A stretch of DNA of 64,000 nucleotides from the NCBI RefSeq assembly GCF_035083965.1, contig NC_089738.1, positions 15,650,734-15,714,733 of the forward strand. Reading direction: 5' to 3'. This DNA is from Branchiostoma lanceolatum. Its lineage: Eukaryota; Chordata; Leptocardii; Amphioxiformes; Branchiostomatidae. The notes under the pieces are model-generated. The model worked only from the letters and a program-made list of their open reading frames with translations, had not been told where the DNA came from and made no database searches. Shown piece by piece: positions 27,020-61,233 of the stretch (position 1 is its first letter; each line of letters begins with the position of its first letter). A program made the translations under genes and the position numbers.

Positions 27020-27765
27020 CAGACGGACAGACGGACAGACATGCAGACACACCCAAATAATATCTCCAAACGTGATATATCGCACTGCTCAGCTCAATGA
27101 ATGACATGTTATAGCTCATGGAATTTAGTTAATACAAATGTCAATAACAATTTATTACGCCTGTTGCAAAATGTTCTTACACAGGTTGCATCAAAGGCTT
27201 TAAAATGTGGCGCGGAATCTGCTACAAAGTGTTTACCGCACGTAAGAGCTTCACGGATTCTGCTGCGATCTGTCGTCAATTGGGTGGCACCCTGGCCATG
27301 CCCCGAGATGCTGATACCAACGCCTTCCTGATCTCTCTACACGAGGCCGCAGCGTTCACAAGCCGGGTGTATGTGAGGTTCGGCCTGCACGATTGGCGTG
27401 AAGAAGGAAGCTTTGAGTGGATGGACGGTACTGCACTCGGGAACTACACCTCTTGGGGTCCGGGACAACCACAGACCGGCAGCAGGAGAAGGGAATGCGT
27501 CTTCTACGACCCCACCAAGAAATACAAATGGTACAGTGCATATTGTGAACAACGTGTGCCATTCATCTGTCAAGTCACTCCAGGTACGTACTATTAATTC
27601 CTACCGTATGATCGCCATAACTTTCTGTGTGTCTTCATTCACTGGATTATTCACGTTAAATCATTATTGGCACTAACATACAACTTTTCCAAGACACTCC
27701 ACATTCTAAACATGGTCATGGGGATTTAAAATGTGTTGGGTCATTCTTTTACAGGACGTACATAG
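25671..27765 (+). CDS. Type II transmembrane C-type lectin-like protein
   Basis: Six exons: 25671..25716, 25955..26059, 26410..26532, 26702..26785, 27185..27583 and 27755..27765; 768 bases, 255 residues, all phases closing. Domains: cytoplasmic Pro/Gln-rich tail (1-73); membrane anchor about 74-91 (ITGFVFALIITILLPYLA) preceded by a basic KRTKCCHLRK run; short helical stalk 92-119; C-type lectin domain 121-249 (GICYKVF, AAICRQLGGTLAMP, FGLHDWREEGSFEWMDGT, CEQRVPFIC). The cysteine framework is present. The usual calcium/sugar triplet (EPN or QPD) reads QPQ, and WND reads WYS, so classical calcium-dependent sugar binding is doubtful. ATG 25671 is the first in-frame ATG; the frame stays open upstream to about 25578. 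If the exon 5 donor is not used, the end becomes GTYY instead of GRT. Family reliable, ligand unknown. Confidence 0.88.
26937..27020. repeat. (CA)n microsatellite
   Basis: More than 30 CA units with a few interruptions, in lectin intron 4. Confidence 0.95.
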
Positions 27766-29728: not shown

Positions 29729-37896
<8,168 letters not shown>

Positions 37897-40916: not shown

Positions 40917-50036
<9,120 letters not shown>

Positions 50037-50542
50037 CGCTGGAAGGAATAAGACAGCTATAATCATCATCCTATACTACTACTACGAACGAGGTCAATTC
50101 ACTTTTTGAGAACCACGTTTCTTGTCACATGTAGCCGCCACATGTAATTGTTTTAGCGGCTACTAGCCACTATTTCTGGCCTCAGAAAGCCACTGTTTTC
50201 AGGTACTTGTCGGCCACGGTACAGCTACAGATTGAAAAATCACATTCCCACGTTCTATTTTCTGTTGTGGTGGCAGGCCGAGAAAAGTGCTTGTAAAATT
50301 CACCAGGTTTTGATTTAGTGTCTTACAATGATTCATTTTTCACCATCAGAAATTCTTTAACAGCTTAGGGATTTTGGAATTGTACAAGTCTTAAACAAGG
50401 CAGTTGATATTTCGGTACGGTGTTTGCAGTTAATTATGTCATGTAAATGTAGTGCATATGCTGTTTGTTTTTTTAAATTCCCTAACCATTACAGTTCCAA
50501 GAATACTAAAACACACAAAAAAAACGTAAACACAGCTCTCAC

Positions 50543-52103: not shown

Positions 52104-55100
52104 ATGAGCTTGAAAGACCGACGTAACAGCGATGGCTACAAGAACTGGCTGCGGGTGGGGTTAGCCCTGTTAGCCACCCGGGATGGTCTGACTGACGTCA
52201 CCCTGCGAGCGGCGAGGGAACTGCATGCCGAGCTCAAAGACAAGCTTGGGGACAGCGTAGAAAGCTGCAAATGTAACCCGAAGAAAAAACAAGAATGTGA
52301 TGTAAGTAAGAATGACACAGCAGATCTCAATTGAATACAGATCTATCTGGTCTGGAATACATAAAGAACTAAAATATTAAAAAAAATACAATTTTCCATA
52401 TGTCGTCGTTAAATGGTATACAGTATGGCCCCTTATTCCAGCGCCCATATGTATTTTGCTGGCTTTGTCAATGTCTACATTTGCCATTTCTGTGGCTATT
52501 GTGGTGGCTCATATGTGCGTGGCTGTTACGGTTCGACGTAACGTTACATTCGGTTGGAGGGCTACAGGTAGTCTCTAAGCAGAGGTCAATCGGGAAGATT
52601 GTAACGTTCCTCCCATATACCAAAAAAAACCCGGGGCATATGAGAAGGTTACCATCTTCCCAATCAACCTCTGCTAGGAGACCAGACAACAAGGACAAAT
52701 TTCATGACCAGGCACTGACAAACGGTGTTGTATTCATGTTCCTAGGACTGTAAACCATGGCGGCAGGAGTTGGAATCGTACTACAAAGGCGCCAAGAGTC
52801 AGATCTACTGGACCAACTGCACCCCCAACAAGTGGAGCAAGGAACCATGGGAGGTCGCAAAGGTCAGTGGCCCATATTTTGTGTAATTTTTGTGAGGAAT
52901 CCTTAGCCGTTCTTTTGTCACATACAATGTTCCATATCCGTTTAGAGGCCGTAGGGGCAGTGGGTTGTTATCCTCTGCTGTGCACGTGTCTAGGACACAG
53001 TATTGGAAGGCGGAGACCATCCCTCTTCAATTCGCTCACTGCCTTTACCTCCCAAGCCAAAGTCAGATACTAGGAGGAATGAGGAAAGTCATGTTAAGTT
53101 CCTTTCTCAAGAACGCAACATCTAGCCAGTATTGCCAAGAATCGAACCCGTGCCCTCTGGCTCGATCTCGTGTGTACTAGCCAAGCCACTCGACGCCACA
53201 CGCAGTGCCAGAAGCAATGTGACCCGCTCCTGACGTCACCTTTACGTATGGTTGACGCTTGTCAGATTTGAGTGGTGTAGAACACCGAAGTCGGTCGACA
53301 ATTCATATTTTTATTTGTGTTTGATCAAGCAATTAAGAAGCCAAGGTTTTTAGGATATGTTTCCTGCCAAGACAGATGACCTTTCAGTCTAAACTTGACA
53401 AATACATTTTGATCTTTAACCCAGTACAGGTGTTCATGCCCAGAGGTCAAAGCACGGACAACACAGGGCCGCAGACGTCAGATACTTCAGCGCTGTTGAA
53501 CTTCATTGTACACTGCAAATTTTGCTTTAAGTTCGTCAGCGCTAATTCCTCGCAGAAGGTAGGTCATTTTCCAGCACTCAATTCAAGAGACGATGTAAAA
53601 TTTTGTATACAAAGCAGTGACAGAAATGCTGAGCTTGGATGACAGACAAAAAGTGGTGCAGAAGATAGACTGTTCTTTACCCGTCAGTTGCTTAAGATAT
53701 CATTCATAGACTATAGAGGTATTTGAACGTATTCAATGAGAATATTATTAGTGTCATGGTTTGCATATTCCCTTTTACAAAATACTAGTATGTGTCTATA
53801 ATATCTATTGCATTATGGATTCATCGTTGTGTTCACTGCGAAATTTTCCATATAGTTTTATTGTAGACACCCACATACAAGTGTATAAACATTTAGCACA
53901 CTTAACTTGCTGTTTGGCAGATTACCTGTTGGTCACAGAGTTAGGCAGCAGGGATGAGGTTAAGGAGAGTCTCACCAGTAATGTCCAGCCATGCTGACAA
54001 CTCGACATTATGGAATTGACAGACGTTATGCTAATGATGTATCTATCTCCAACTATTGATCAGACATTTGAGCAGAAATGCTTTCCTTTGTACCTACAAG
54101 GTTATAGCAGTGCGGAATCGCGCCATGCACTCCGCGGACCTGACTTTCAGCCAGAAGGAATTCCAAGATCACATGGCTGCACTCCTGAACCTGATGCATG
54201 ATCCAAAACTGGGCTCAGACCCGGCTGCACAGAAGGCTGCGGACGAGATCAGTAAGGTAGGCTGATAAAATGACTGCAAAATGTGATGGTATATTTATTA
54301 ACTTGTGCATCTAATTCTTTTACGGTTGTTCTTGTCTCATCAATTGCTGGTCACTACCGTCTCTCTCAAGCTGAGATATCTGAACTTTATGACATGAAAT
54401 TGATGAAAATGCATTTTTGTAAGTTTCAGTTGAAATATTTAACAACGAAAATTAACAATATGGGGTCCCAAACAGTGAGCGGGGCGGAAAAATGTAAAGC
54501 TGGAGTAAGCATCAGACATTTAGTTAATTGTGTTCTCATTTCGCCTTATGATGCGAAATGATTACAAAGGCATTGCTTTCACTAATAGATTATATGATAC
54601 AAAACAATTAAGATAACATAAAAATGGTTTGAATTCGTCACAGATCCAGACGGAAGACTTTCAGATCGGTGCCGACCAAGCTTGCCACGATGCAGAGGTA
54701 CGCGTTCTCACGGACATGATGGAGGACTACAGGAAATCGCTGGCGCTTCATGAGAAGGAGTTGGGGGATCACGCGACCCGCCTGGAGGCCCTGGAGCAGG
54801 GGAGGACGTCAGAAGAAGAGGTACACAATAGCTGCAACATCTTCTATACTTACGGTGCTGGAAAATGATACGTCTTTTCTTTCACAAATTTGTATGTACA
54901 TGTACAGACGAATAGAAACAAGGTAAAGAAACGTGCCCAATTTTTGTTGGTTTTAGTTGTTTTGATAAATTGTTAGGTTTAAGATCCATACATGAATTAT
55001 TGTACAACGATTTTGAAATCTTTGGTATGATATGTTTTGATAAAGGTAAAATACACACATCCATGCTTACATATGATATTTGTGTGTGTATGATTTTGTT

Positions 55101-57506
55101 GAAAATTGACATTTTTATTTGATTTTGGGCATGTGGCACAGATGCTTATTTTTTTGTACCCAACGCAGGTTCCATCACAGGCCGTGAACTCTATCTTAGA
55201 CATAGTAAACGGCAACGACGACCTACAGAGCGTCCTGAAAGACAAGGCTTCGGAGCTGTCGACCATGTTACAGCAGTACCAGAGCAGGTTAGGTAAGGTG
55301 GAGGGGGACGTGGCAGACATCAAAGATGAGGTGAGTCAACTGGATAAAACGATGACTAAACAACAGGCACAACTGGATGACGTCACCGCACGTGTCGATG
55401 ACGAAATCAGTGATGTGAAGGCTGACATTGGTGACGTCAAGACTTCCGTTGATGACGTCAAGGAAGACTTGACGAAAGTCAAACAGAAGCTACTAGAGGC
55501 GCCACCGGGGAGTCCCAAGCCAACAGCAGGTAGGTCAACTACATGTACTTTGCCATAGATTCTTTCCAACCATGCACCCACTGATCATGAAGATGACATG
55601 TTATCTCTTGTAGATTAAAGAAAAAGAAATACAATACCTTGTTAGCCTCACATAAAGACACTTTATGTTATTTGTACCTGTGAACACAGTTGAAAACATG
55701 AACTCTTGGAGAGAAAGTGTGGACTTAATCCGGGTGAGTCTCCCGATAAAATGATGATGCACAAACATCTAAATATTACCTACGTTATACCACAGGCGCC
55801 AGTATTAGCTGCAAGAACACACTGCAAGAGTACCTGGACAAGGAAAAGCTGCCCAAAGCAAAGTACGTGAGGGTAGAGGGTGACGGATCGAACACAGGGC
55901 AACCTCCCTTCACATTTAAGATCGTACTGCAATACAAGAACGCCCTCTTTCGGCCGGATGGTGGATTTGCATCCAAGAAAGTCGCCACTCAAAAGGCGTG
56001 TGAGTTAGCCCTGCAGAGGTTGGGACAATCACACTTAACCAAAGGTAAGAGCTATATTTTGCTACGTTGAGCGGTTGCAGAAAGCTTATGACGTCCCCTG
56101 TCTACGTGTTTTCAAAAATGTCTCAATGAAAGACCATGCTATTCAGGCTCTTCTGAATCCTGGATATATATTTGTATATATTTATTTACATTTACAAAAT
56201 ATTGTTTACAGATCCGACACACTTCAGGGCAGAACTTCAAGAGTTCCTGAAAAAACAAGGTCAAGAACCAGAAATCGAAGTTACTCAGGGCGAACAAGGT
56301 TTCTGCGCTGAAGTTAGAATGACTGGTAGAGGAGAATTTCCTCAAGGTAAGATAACATCTAATGCAGTTTATATGGCCTCAGAAAACCTTGTCTGCCACA
56401 CTTAAATTGTATATATATATTTATATATGATAAATTATAAAAAAAGCACTGGGAAAATCTATTTTCTATATTCTACTTGGCGAAGTTGAAGGTCAAACTA
56501 AGGGGGAAAAGGGAAAAGAAGAAACTAGCTCCAAAACATGCAGTTGTTATAATATTACAGTTATAAAGTCATTTGATTAAAACTGTGTTCCAGGAGACAC
56601 CAGCAGCAATAAGAAAGAAGCAGAACAAAGCGCTGCAGAGAAAGCCCTACTTGCCTTAGGTGTGCCGCTGCCAGTATTATCCGTGCGTCCCACTAAACAG
56701 GCCAGTCCCGTACATGGAGCGAAGGCGTCCAACAAAGACGGCATTAAAGCAACAGGTAAGGAAAAAATCCTTGAATTTAAGTTTTCTAAATTCTTTATCC
56801 AACACAAAAAGAAATGTCTCACCGAATTGTCAGTCGTTTCGTCAAGAATTTGACCTACGTTTCTGATGCGCACTGAACTTCGGGATGACATCAGGAGTGC
56901 ATGGGTCAAAATGAAACTTTCACGTAAAAGATTTCTCTGCTATGGTATATGTATTACTAATAGAAATTGGATGTGCTTGTTGTGTATGAATATCATAATC
57001 GACCTTAAACATCAGATTCTTGTTTTTGTTTCAGGTGGAAGTAGGGCAGTGGCCATGGTGACTAAAGACGACACAGACTACAAGGCTGTTCTGAAAGAAC
57101 ACGTAAAGAAACAGAAGCTTCAAGCTCCGCTCTACAAAACCAATCCTGACATTGTAACCTTCCTGTCAACCGTCACCTTCAAGACAGCGGGCGCCTACCA
57201 AACGACCGAACCTGCAAAGGGCAAGAAAGAAGCCGAACAGAATGCTGCAAATGCGGTGGTTCGCATGTTAAGCATCCCTTTCAGGGACGCTAATTACAAA
57301 GGTGCTTTACAGGAGTTCACCTCCAAGGTTGACTCGTCCAACGTCCCAACCTACCACACGTACAAGTCTCAGGGTGGTTATGTCAGCGTCGTACGCTGTA
57401 AGGCCATCACTGAAGCCTGCAGCTTCAAAGTCTCCATACCTGAGGAGCCCCCAAACGTCCCGGATGAGCTCCAAGCACAGCTTCTTTCAGGTCAGAGATG
57501 TTTTGA

Positions 57507-57563
<57 letters not shown>

Positions 57564-60063
57564 ACATGTATATATAACTGAAATCATTCTTATCATTGGT
57601 GCAACTGGCAGAGCGAAAAAACAATGTTTTCCTTAAAGTCATGGTTATGATATTTTTTCAGGGAACACAATGAACGAAGTGAAAGCAGCGGAGCAGAAAG
57701 TCGCCAAATTCGCCTTAGATATTTTGGGAGTACCATATGAAGCACCCAAACAAGTGACAACGAAAGACACTAGTGTACCAGAGATGAAGGGGACAGAAGT
57801 CAACGGTCTAAAGGCAAAGACAGCGACGGAAGATGTAAACGTACATTCCACTACTGTGGCCTTGGCTCCGGAAACGAAGGAAACCATCTCAAATCCGGCT
57901 GCTGCAAATCCTGCGCCTTACACGGAAGCCAAACAGACTAGAAATGATCGACCCTCATCACAAGAGGAAGGTAGGTTCCCAACTATGTCTTTTCTTCCCT
58001 GTCGTAGGGAGCATTCGATGGTCATCAAGGCTAAAGCCTCAAAGGCGTAACAAATTCCACAATGGTGACCTCAACCCAACATAATAGCACAGGTGCGGCC
58101 TACAGAGGAGAACTTGTTCGCACTAGCAGATAATATCCTGTTGATCCCTATTGTTGGAACTCATGATCGACCATTTAAGGATCTCCTTTCTTCTTTTCAG
58201 TTTGGAGGGTGGCAACCGTTAGCAAAGCCAGTGCATCCTATAAGGATATACTGCAAAAATACGTGCAAGATCAGAAGCTCCCATCACCGAGATACAAAGA
58301 TGTCGAAGGAGGAGAAACTACCCTGCCCGCTGTCAGCTTCAAGACAAGAGGCGCCTACCAAACCACCGAACCTGCCAAGAGCAAGAAGGAAGCCGAACAA
58401 AATGCGGCAAAAGCGGTGACTGAAATGTTGAAAGTTACCGCAAAAAATAACAACTACAAAGGCGCTTTGCAGGAATATGCCAGCAAGGACAGTTCATCCG
58501 ACATCCCCAAGTACTACACGTACAAGCTAAAAGATGGCTATATTAGTGTAGTACGCTGCCAGGCCATCACTGAGCCGTGTAGCTTCAATCTTGTGGCACC
58601 TGACGGAGAAACAGATGAACTTCAGGCAGTAGCAACAACAACATCGCTTTCACAAGGTTAGTTGTACATATATATATCAAACTTTTTTCTCCTTGCCACA
58701 CAGAACTATTCACGCTCCCATTGTATGTTTGGAGAAGCGGGGCACTATGGGTAGCTCAGAGAGCAAACAACGTCATTACCATGACAACGTGGACCTCGCC
58801 GGACACATGCCTCCTGAGCTACCCATAGTGCCCTGCGTTTCCCAGCATGCAAGGGACTTTGTGAACATGTTTAAGAGCTATCACATCTCGTCCACTACGG
58901 GAAAATATGTAAGCAACTGCCCTAACTCCTTCCAGGACACCTGCGTGAAAAAGCGAAAGAGAATGTTGCGAAGTTTGCAGTGGATGTCTTGGAGATCCTC
59001 AAGCAGTCGCCAAACCAAACAGCAGATATCGCGCCAGAAGCCAAGGGGCCAGGCAAGGATGAGAAAGATATAAGTGCACGTGCTAGAGTGGAAAATGCAA
59101 AAGGCCTTAAGTCAGCCACAACAACAACAGCAGCACCAGGGACAGAGGCAAGCGGTGCATCTGCTGGGAAGGTCACCGCTGCTACCGCACCCGACGTCGC
59201 AAACAGGGCTGCTTCTCGACTACAAGACGACGGTAAGAGTTTATGAAGACCTGTTAAAGACAACTGGTTCACCAAGCCTTTTGCACACATGCTTGCAACC
59301 AAGAGATATCTACCTCCCGACGTTTCGGTAATCCTTCTGCAACCTTCCTTGGCCAGGTTAACCGTGATGAGGGGGATGGAATTTTAGTCGCGTTGGGGAC
59401 TGCATCATGCTTTTATACTGCGTACAGCCCCTCTGCAATACCAGTCGAAATTGCCATAGCTGATGAAGGTAGTAGGAGTACCAAAACGTCGTAAATTGCT
59501 CATGTAGAGGGATTGTTCCCCTTTGCGCATCAAGTATGTCTTGGACTGTTTCTGATCAAACTCTCGTTTATTTTGTAGATAAACCCGCAGCAGCGGTTGA
59601 CAACGCCGACAGAAACTACAAGGACATCCTACAACAACACGTGCAGAAACAGGGCCTGCAGTTGCCTCTGCCCAAATACCAAGAGTCCATCACCGACGAG
59701 AAAGCCTTCCTGCCAACGGTGAGCTTCAAGACAGCAGGCGCCCTTCAGACCCCCGAAGCTGCTCCAAGTAAGAAAGATTCGGAGCAAAACGCTGCAAAAT
59801 CGGTGATTGACCTGTTGGAAATTACATCGGGAAATAATAGCAACTACAAGGGCGCTCTACAGCAATATGCAACGAAGTTAGATAGCACGGATATTCCTAA
59901 GTATACGACATATAGCTGCGAGGGAGGATTTAAAACCGTTGTAACCTGCCGCGCTATTACTGAAGCGACAGGTTTTGAGGTTCCGTCAGAAGCATGTACC
60001 AGCAAGAAAGAAGCGCAACAGCGTGCCGCTCGCAGAGCAGTAGAATTGCTCGACATACTGTAA
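52104..60063 (+). CDS. CXorf38-like HEPN protein fused to coiled coil and eight dsRBD-like domains
   Basis: Fourteen exons: 52104..52301, 52746..52862, 53430..53558, 54101..54256, 54644..54820, 55169..55529, 55796..56044, 56212..56346, 56594..56755, 57035..57490, 57662..57970, 58201..58656, 58936..59232 and 59579..60063. Total 3687 bases, 1228 residues, every phase closing. Residues 1-200 resemble human CXorf38 (GYKNWLRVGLALL, WTNCTPNKWSKEPWEVAK, FMPRG, VRNRAMHS), a family I recall being placed with the DZIP3-type HEPN domain. Arg153-His158 (RNRAMH) fits the HEPN ribonuclease R-x4-H motif. Residues 205-375 are helical with heptads (VDDEISDVKADIGDVKTSVD). dsRBD-like modules lie near 386-455, 466-525, 576-642, 647-735, 829-897, 903-990, 1080-1147 and 1152-1228, most with KKEAEQNAA-type C-terminal helices. 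Likely a cytosolic dsRNA-binding protein; RNA cleavage is inference. Confidence 0.9.
52572..52684. mobile_element. Fold-back element, ~46-bp arms
   Basis: The arm starting GTCTCTAAGCAGAGGTCAAT is repeated inverted, ending AACCTCTGCTAGGAGAC, in intron 1 of the dsRBD gene. The arms differ at several positions. Confidence 0.75.
53080..53215 (-). mobile_element. tRNA-derived SINE
   Basis: The minus strand reads TGTGGCGTCGAGTGGCTTGG, then GGGTTCGATTCTTGG (B box) and the AAGGAACTTAAC tail of the same SINE family. It lies in intron 2 of the dsRBD gene. Confidence 0.65.
57511..57560. repeat. (TC)n microsatellite
   Basis: About 25 CT units just after exon 10 of the dsRBD gene. Confidence 0.95.
58723..58850. 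mobile_element. MITE with GGGCACTATGGGTAGC ends, copy 1
   Basis: The left part GGGGCACTATGGGTAGCTCA is repeated inverted as GAGCTACCCATAGTGCCC, followed by TTTCCCAGCATGC. It sits in the intron between exons 12 and 13 of the dsRBD gene. A second copy is at 61033..61174. Confidence 0.85.
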
Positions 60064-61233
60064 ATGCTTTGAAGTTCGCGGTAGAGGAAAAATGGAGTGT
60101 TAACAGTGGTTTTAAGTTTGAAACAATACTGGCGCTACAGTCACGTGGTGGAAACATCGGCGGCTTGAAGAGTTCACCGCGAAAACTGCGAACATAAAAC
60201 GAACATTTCTGCATTTACTGTACCATTGCAATGAACAAATGATTATAGTCGCCTCGGCAGGCTGTACAAGTCGGAATCTGTTGGCCTCCCTATGGAGGTG
60301 GCCTACAAGGGACCGAGTGCAATAGAACTGATTTGCCATCAGAGAAAAAAACAAACATATCATACGCCCCCAAAATCCAGACTCGTATAGCTTGTTAAGG
60401 CGGCTAATATGCCTTGTGCAGCACTGCAATGCATACATTCCAAGTACCTGTAGTTTTGAGCGCGTTTATAATGATTTTCTGAACACGCGTCTCATGTGGA
60501 AAGTGCTAACATACAGTTGCCTTCAAAAGTCTCTATCTCCCTTAAGGACATAGGCCTTGAATGAACCTTGAAGGAAACTCAATATTTTCTATCGGCAACT
60601 GTACCCCAAAATGGTGCAGAGAAAACTTGTACTGCCTTAATGTGGAATGATTGTCTCTTTTAGGAATCCCAAGTGCTTTTAGACAATTATCTTACTCAAG
60701 AGAATGATTGAACAGCAGTTTCGTATCTTTCAATCACGGATATTCAGGAAATATTTTACTCGGGAAATGCTTGTAATGTTACAATCTTTAAAACGAGTTT
60801 TTACAATTTATCAATCTAGATTTGCATACTGTAGGAATACTGCAGTCAGTGCAGTGTAATTTGGACCCGTCCTTTTTGATGATGAGTACTTTAACTTAGA
60901 TATTCTAGTCGAGATACCAATTTACTCATCTATTGATAAGTCACTGTACTTATCACCCAGTGCAAAGAAATGAAGCTGCATGAATCTCGCTGCATGTTGT
61001 TATTTTCTAAGGACATTTTCACAGATCCTGTGGCATGCTGGGAGACGTAGGGCACTATGGGTAGTGCAGGGAGCAAACAACATAACCATGACAACAGACC
61101 ATGCCATGACTTACCATGGTAATGACATTGCTTGCCCCCTGGGTTACCCATAGTGCTCTGTGTCTCCCAGCATACAATTAGATCTGTGACAATATGTGTT
61201 GTATGTCTCCATGTTATGAGATATCATAATAAA
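60064..61233 (+). other. Probable 3' UTR of the dsRBD gene
   Basis: No coding sequence is seen. AATAAA at 61228..61233 is a candidate polyadenylation signal, and a MITE at 61033..61174 would lie inside the UTR. Confidence 0.35.
61033..61174. mobile_element. MITE with GGGCACTATGGGTAG ends, copy 2
   Basis: GCATGCTGGGAGACGTAGGG at the left is matched, inverted, by CCCATAGTGCTCTGTGTCTC and CCAGCATA at the right. Both ends and the GAGCAAACAACRTNATTACCATGACAAC-like interior are shared with 58723..58850. Confidence 0.85.

What the first reader, a model, noticed from the sequence alone, without database searches (positions are those of the whole stretch)
52104..60063. HEPN-like, coiled-coil and eightfold dsRBD domains in one protein
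Seen: a 14-exon model with perfect phase closure joins a CXorf38-like N-terminus, a heptad coiled coil and eight dsRBD-like modules. Known: HEPN domains with R-x4-6-H are ribonucleases in RNase L and many defence systems, and tandem dsRBDs sense dsRNA in PKR and ADAR-type proteins. Human CXorf38, as I recall it, has no dsRBDs. Inference: a single-chain dsRNA-triggered RNA-cleaving or antiviral sensor, with the coiled coil driving the dimerisation HEPN nucleases need. I know of no described protein with this layout.
Basis: partly seen in the sequence, partly recalled or inferred. Interest (0 to 1): 0.92.

Follow-up and report, generated by a model that had tools for sequence, protein, structure and literature searches.

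The report
CXorf38-type HEPN protein with eight dsRBDs
A probable lancelet gene joins a predicted RNA-cutting domain, a coiled coil and eight double-stranded-RNA-binding-type modules; it looks real and suits an antiviral role, but this kind of fusion was already described in 2013, for lancelets among others.

Summary
Residues 8-317 match Pfam DUF4559, the CXorf38 family, at 1.2e-55. Six of eight C-terminal modules match Pfam dsrm (five above its cut-off); modules 4 and 6 are recognised only through their sister modules. The heptad signal lies in exon 6, not exon 5. The R-x4-H motif is RNRAMH, residues 153-158.

The novelty claim fails. Anantharaman et al. 2013 (PMC3710099, passages) define CXorf38 as a HEPN family, rate it active, list Branchiostoma, and report fusions to dsRBDs in vertebrates, cephalochordates and hemichordates, with an antiviral proposal. 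Particular here may be the number of dsRBDs, grown by duplication of a two-dsRBD unit.

The 'eightfold sensor' reading is weakened: seven of eight modules lack the third lysine of KKxAK, and four of eight are net negative.

Untested: the HEPN fold (structure prediction closed), the exon 6-7 join by cDNA, all biochemistry. Most likely: a dsRNA-triggered or dsRNA-directed HEPN RNase.

The parts
52104..54256 (+). Exons 1-4 (52104-52301, 52746-52862, 53430-53558, 54101-54256): CXorf38/DUF4559 HEPN-type domain, residues 1-200; R-x4-H motif RNRAMH at residues 153-158 in exon 4; cysteines 55, 57, 65, 68 as a possible zinc ribbon
   Evidence: Pfam PF15112 E 1.5e-51 on residues 1-200; exon model; motif and cysteines; HEPN assignment of the family from PMC3710099
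54644..54820 (+). Exon 5: residues 201-259, within the DUF4559 match, no heptad signal over 205-258
55169..55529 (+). Exon 6: heptad coiled coil, residues about 270-372; ends in phase 1
   Evidence: heptad periodicity 160.7 against shuffle mean 19.0, sd 12.2, 0 of 2000; DUF4559 match runs to residue 317
55796..56044 (+). Exon 7: dsRBD M1, net charge +6
   Evidence: PF00035 E 1.8e-8; nearest solved chains HYL1 E 0.0014 and F21M12.9 protein E 0.002, then TARBP2 E 0.14; charge
56212..56755 (+). Exons 8-9 (56212-56346, 56594-56755): dsRBD M2, net charge -5
   Evidence: PF00035 E 2.5e-10 across the exon 8-9 join; nearest solved chain PKR E 9.5e-4; charge
57035..57970 (+). Exons 10-11 (57035-57490, 57662-57970): dsRBDs M3 and M4 and a linker; first copy of the two-dsRBD unit
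   Evidence: M3 PF00035 E 7.9e-4, below cut-off; M4 no Pfam match; M4 recovered by HMM of other modules; exon 10 is 456 nt
58201..59232 (+). Exons 12-13 (58201-58656, 58936-59232): dsRBDs M5 and M6 and a linker; second copy of the unit
   Evidence: M5 PF00035 E 6.4e-7; M6 no Pfam match; M6 recovered by HMM; exon 12 also 456 nt
59579..60063 (+). Exon 14: dsRBDs M7 and M8 with the stop codon; third copy of the unit, in one exon
   Evidence: PF00035 E 1.9e-6 and 8.1e-10; identity 50% to exon 12 and 46% to exon 10; match over both modules to solved 'Double-stranded RNA-binding protein 4' E 1.1e-4

Best explanation
It is a CXorf38-family HEPN protein with a C-terminal array of eight dsRBD-family modules. 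Shown here: the open gene model, the family matches, the R-x4-H motif, the exon-6 heptads and the copies of a two-dsRBD unit. Inferred: the HEPN domain is a metal-independent RNase; the coiled coil pairs two chains; the dsRBDs, perhaps mainly M1 and some others, bring the protein to dsRNA or collect several chains on long dsRNA, so that RNA is cut when dsRNA, for example from a virus, is present. In outline it would do in one chain what the OAS-RNase L pair does in two (that comparison is recalled).
For: DUF4559 E 1.2e-55; dsrm matches in six of eight modules and all eight related to each other; R-x4-H with N after R, as PMC3710099 says is typical where the motif is kept, 0.02 RNx3H expected by chance in residues 1-200; exon-6 heptads, 0 of 2000 shuffles; dN/dS 0.25 and 0.12 for two of three exon pairs over all codons, the third saturated; the published family description and proposal.
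Against: No experiment and no structure model (not accepted). No other Pfam family, hence no other HEPN model, matches residues 1-200 up to E 10, so the HEPN assignment rests on the 2013 profile work and the motif. Seven of eight modules lack the third lysine of KKxAK, and none has the whole motif. Net charge is negative in four of eight modules (M2 -5, M4 -2, M6 -1, M7 -1). The paper search finds CXorf38 with dsRNA only in PMC3710099, and neither human CXorf38 paper that I searched holds 'HEPN'.
Confidence: 0.5

Rival explanations
1. Same gene and architecture, but most dsRBD modules are protein-protein interaction domains and only M1 and perhaps a few others touch RNA; the array is a scaffold or oligomeriser for the HEPN domain rather than an eightfold sensor.
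For: Third lysine of KKxAK missing in seven of eight modules; net charges from -5 to +6, negative in four of eight; M4 and M6 have long inserts before helix 2 (alignment). KKxAK contacts the RNA backbone in TRBP (PMC5852647, passages).
Against: First two lysines are kept in six of eight modules; the nearest solved relatives of M1 (HYL1) and of the M7-M8 pair (DRB4) are dsRNA binders (recalled).
Confidence: 0.3
2. Two neighbouring genes: a CXorf38 gene (exons 1-6) and a separate multi-dsRBD gene (exons 7-14), wrongly joined.
For: The 6-7 join lies between domains, so no domain continuity proves it; the exon 6 frame read past its donor stops after 9 codons, and intron 6 holds one polyA-like hexamer at 55614.
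Against: Intron 6 is 266 nt; exon 6 donor and exon 7 acceptor agree in phase; exon 7 has no in-frame ATG, nor has its frame upstream to the stop at 55747; of five open ATG-to-donor stretches found between about 55230 and 55760 (five donor patterns only), neither of the two inside intron 6 ends in phase 1, while one of the three that start in exon 6 does. CXorf38-dsRBD fusions in cephalochordates are published.
Confidence: 0.07
3. The HEPN domain is not an active RNase here; the protein sequesters or localises dsRNA.
For: I saw no report of activity for a CXorf38 protein in the passages read (in one search the terms gave no passages); 'RNase' was not a search term for the human CXorf38 papers. 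R-x4-6-H alone is common by chance (0.72 expected in residues 1-200).
Against: R153-N154...H158 has the form that PMC3710099 calls typical; that paper rates the family active.
Confidence: 0.13

Closest known systems
CXorf38 family of HEPN domains with dsRBD fusions (Anantharaman et al. 2013, PMC3710099; Pfam PF15112 DUF4559)
   Same: N-terminal domain, R-x4-6-H, possibly the inserted cysteine cluster, fusion to dsRBDs; cephalochordates named among the carriers
   Different: The passages I read give no dsRBD count and no gene identity, and figures are not held, so I cannot say whether this very gene is the one drawn; eight modules and the copied two-dsRBD unit are not mentioned in them
Human CXorf38
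   Same: Family of the N-terminal domain; the family model reaches into the coiled coil
   Different: By recall about 319 residues and without dsRBDs
RNase L with OAS
   Same: Would couple dsRNA sensing to HEPN-type (KEN) RNase action
   Different: Two proteins and a 2-5A messenger, KEN-type HEPN, ankyrin repeats (recalled); here sensing and cutting would lie in one chain
Plant DRB proteins HYL1 and DRB4
   Same: Closest solved sequences to M1 (E 0.0014) and to the M7-M8 pair (E 1.1e-4); modules M3-M6 were not searched
   Different: No HEPN domain (recalled)
Cyanobacterial HEPN-RNase III-dsRBD proteins (PMC3710099, passages)
   Same: HEPN and dsRBD in one chain
   Different: Have an RNase III domain; bacterial

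Membership tests
CXorf38 / DUF4559 | Whole-domain profile match above the curated cut-off | tested here: met
   PF15112, 189.6 bits against cut-off 27, profile 3-305 of 305
HEPN superfamily | R-x4-6-H motif with a polar residue after R | tested here: met
   RNRAMH at 153-158; rule from PMC3710099
HEPN superfamily | HEPN helical fold | not tested
HEPN superfamily | RNase activity needing the H of the motif | not testable with these tools
   Needs purified protein
CXorf38 HEPN subfamily | Zinc ribbon inserted in the HEPN domain | tested here: inconclusive
   C-x-C at 55/57 and C-x2-C at 65/68, further cysteines at 91, 134, 137; ligands not established
dsRBD (PF00035) | Profile match in each module | tested here: inconclusive
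   Six of eight at E <= 1e-3, five of eight above cut-off, M4 and M6 none up to E 10; M4 and M6 related to the rest by HMM
dsRNA-binding dsRBD | KKxAK motif | tested here: not met
   First two K in six of eight; third K only in M6, whose first two are R and E; none of eight has the whole motif
Coiled coil | Heptad periodicity | tested here: met
   Residues 270-372, 0 of 2000 shuffles; 205-258 fails, 1609 of 2000

The most novel reading that the evidence does not exclude
An RNase L without OAS: a single-chain, length-gauging antiviral nuclease in which a repeated dsRBD pair, grown by exon duplication, measures long dsRNA, lines up several chains and thereby pairs HEPN domains that then cut RNA, in an animal lineage often said to lack interferon (recalled).
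Probability: 0.15. Interest if true: 0.75.

Novelty: new member of a known kind. Interest (0 to 1): 0.36.

Why it matters
If it works as proposed, it is a natural single-chain link between dsRNA and a HEPN RNase and would suggest a testable function for human CXorf38. The kind of protein and the main proposal are already in print, so the gain is a well-defined, expanded member to test rather than a new class.

Tried and rejected
Relatives: viral-contig scans with the N-terminal domain, exon 14 and exon 7 gave 1, 8 and 8 candidate stretches and no confirmed relative. The genome-contig scan confirmed one of 13 candidate stretches, L001; rejected, because the matched stretch holds three internal stops and lies antisense within a 221-aa ORF. 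Given single proteins, these scans reach close relatives only.

Paralogues: tblastn of the model against the window up to E 10 gives hits only inside the gene itself: its own exons and sister modules.

Solved structures and families: residues 1-200 have one unrelated match, E 2.3. NCBIfam and PADLOC gave nothing for residues 1-200, PADLOC nothing for exon 14. NCBIfam matches of exons 14 and 7 to RNase III, and of exon 14 to a seadornavirus protein, are far below cut-off; I put them down to the shared dsRBD. The many coiled-coil-type Pfam matches to exons 5-6 are below cut-off among the rows shown (25 of 95, of 141 and of 46 families) and are taken as composition.

A separate start for exons 7-14 was looked for around intron 6; none that joins exon 7 in phase starts in intron 6.

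Papers: CXorf38 occurs in 26 papers of the library (listing), with HEPN in 1, with dsRNA in 1; DUF4559 in 2 (listing); two or more of amphioxus, dsRBD and HEPN in 16, 15 listed; Branchiostoma with HEPN in 7, 6 listed; amphioxus with RNase L, antiviral and dsRNA in 3, 2 listed. Passages were seen of PMC3710099, PMC12196990 (one passage), PMC5852647 and PMC8195603; PMC9623088 was searched for six terms with none found. All other papers were seen as listings only. Searches were listings.
Full report
What was claimed.

Gene model. The exons add up to 3687 nt, one frame of 1228 codons and a stop. All 13 introns are GT-AG; introns 1-5 are in phase 0 and introns 6-13 in phase 1. Joins inside a recognised domain are supported by domain continuity: exons 1-6 by DUF4559, exons 8-9 by dsRBD M2, exons 10-11 and 12-13 by the recovery of M4 and M6. 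The joins 6-7, 7-8, 9-10, 11-12 and 13-14 lie between domains and rest on phase, splice sites and order. For 6-7 I looked for a separate gene start: intron 6 is 266 nt, exon 7 and its upstream frame to the stop at 55747 hold no ATG, and neither of two open ATG-to-donor stretches within intron 6 ends in the phase exon 7 needs (five donor patterns tried; one of three stretches that start inside exon 6 does end in phase 1). Against the join, the exon 6 frame stops nine codons after the donor and one polyA-like hexamer lies at 55614. Polyadenylation-type hexamers follow the stop codon at 61228 and 61989. No cDNA was available.

N-terminal part. Pfam DUF4559 (PF15112) matches residues 8-317 at 1.2e-55 over nearly the whole profile, and residues 1-200 alone at 1.5e-51 with no other family up to E 10. 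The model thus reaches into the coiled coil, which is therefore at least partly a feature of the family. The motif RNRAMH lies at residues 153-158. R-x4-6-H by itself is uninformative (0.72 expected in shuffles of residues 1-200, 2 seen); RNx3H is more telling (0.02 expected, 1 seen), though I chose that form after seeing it, guided by the paper's remark that N, D or H mostly follows the R. Cysteines 55, 57, 65 and 68 could be the zinc ribbon that the 2013 paper describes in this family. The fold was not modelled, and the search of solved structures gives no relative.

Coiled coil. Of four stretches tested, residues 270-372 (exon 6) show strong heptad periodicity (160.7; shuffles 19.0, sd 12.2; 0 of 2000), 205-372 likewise (0 of 2000), 205-258 (exon 5) none (1609 of 2000), and 1-200 a weak one (23 of 2000).

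dsRBD array. Six of eight modules match dsrm, five above the curated cut-off; M3 falls just short and M4 and M6 have no match. In leave-one-out HMM tests every module beats all of its scored shuffles (982 to 1000 scored of 1000); M1 is the weakest, 16.2 bits against a best shuffle of 12.9. Exons 10, 12 and 14 are copies of one two-dsRBD unit: 50% and 46% amino-acid identity of exon 14 to exons 12 and 10, and exons 10 and 12 are both 456 nt. DNA identity is 0.56-0.64 over all codons; dN/dS is 0.25 (10-12) and 0.12 (12-14), and cannot be computed for 10-14, where synonymous sites are saturated. For the first modules alone (M3, M5, M7) it is 0.38, 0.31 and 0.30 (10-12, 10-14, 12-14); for the starts of the second modules 0.16 (10-12), the other two saturated. 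With dS near or above 1 these ratios are rough, but they speak for old duplications kept under constraint. Uniform phase-1 introns would make such exon duplication easy (inference).

RNA-binding signs. In TRBP the KKxAK lysines touch the RNA backbone (PMC5852647, passages). Here six of eight modules keep the first two lysines; the third is E in M2, M3, M4, M5 and M7, T in M1, Q in M8, and K only in M6, whose first positions are R and E. Net charges are +6, -5, +4, -2, +4, -1, -1, +1 for M1-M8. The array is therefore not obviously eight strong dsRNA binders. The nearest solved sequences are HYL1 for M1 (E 0.0014), PKR for M2 (E 9.5e-4) and DRB4 for the M7-M8 pair (E 1.1e-4); M3-M6 were not searched there.

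Prior knowledge. PMC3710099 (passages) names CXorf38 as a new HEPN family in its Abi2/Swt1 group with a zinc ribbon insert, rates it active, lists vertebrates, Saccoglossus, Branchiostoma, Ciona and Nematostella, and says that family members are fused to dsRBDs in vertebrates, cephalochordates and hemichordates, which it takes to suggest action on dsRNA such as viral replication intermediates. Two later papers on human CXorf38 were searched for terms: neither holds HEPN. A 2021 paper describes expansions of TRADD-N immune proteins in Branchiostoma and HEPN RNases in such proteins of other animals (PMC8195603, passages), which fits the setting.

Verdict. A real gene by the sequence tests available, a member of the CXorf38-HEPN-dsRBD kind already described for cephalochordates, with a dsRBD array made by duplication of a two-dsRBD unit. 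I found no mention of the eight-module count in the passages read, but did not see the figure. The most likely function is a dsRNA-triggered or dsRNA-directed RNase (0.5), with a mainly structural role of the dsRBDs as the main rival (0.3).

Noticed in passing
58718-58855 and 61015-61193: Two related inverted-repeat elements, MITE-like, one in intron 12 and one downstream of the gene.
   Followed up: partly
about 34748-36941 and 46853-50075, minus strand: At least two alpha-amylase gene copies, extents by eye from the ORFs; the start of the ORF at 49497-50075 matches pancreatic alpha-amylases at 4.6e-14, and the ORFs at 36060-36356 and 47668-47964 match PF00128.
   Followed up: partly
27148-27594, plus strand: C-type lectin domain exon, PF00059 E 1.8e-15.
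   Followed up: partly
29809-30695, plus strand: Open frame (29904-30695) over a 33-base tandem array of 22.9 copies at 29809-30569, giving 11-residue [14 protein letters not shown] repeats that match the apolipoprotein A1/A4/E model at 3e-13, below its cut-off.
   Followed up: partly
55698-55733: Open ATG-to-donor stretch in intron 6 that ends in phase 0, not the phase 1 that exon 7 needs; possibly an unused or alternative small exon.
   Followed up: partly
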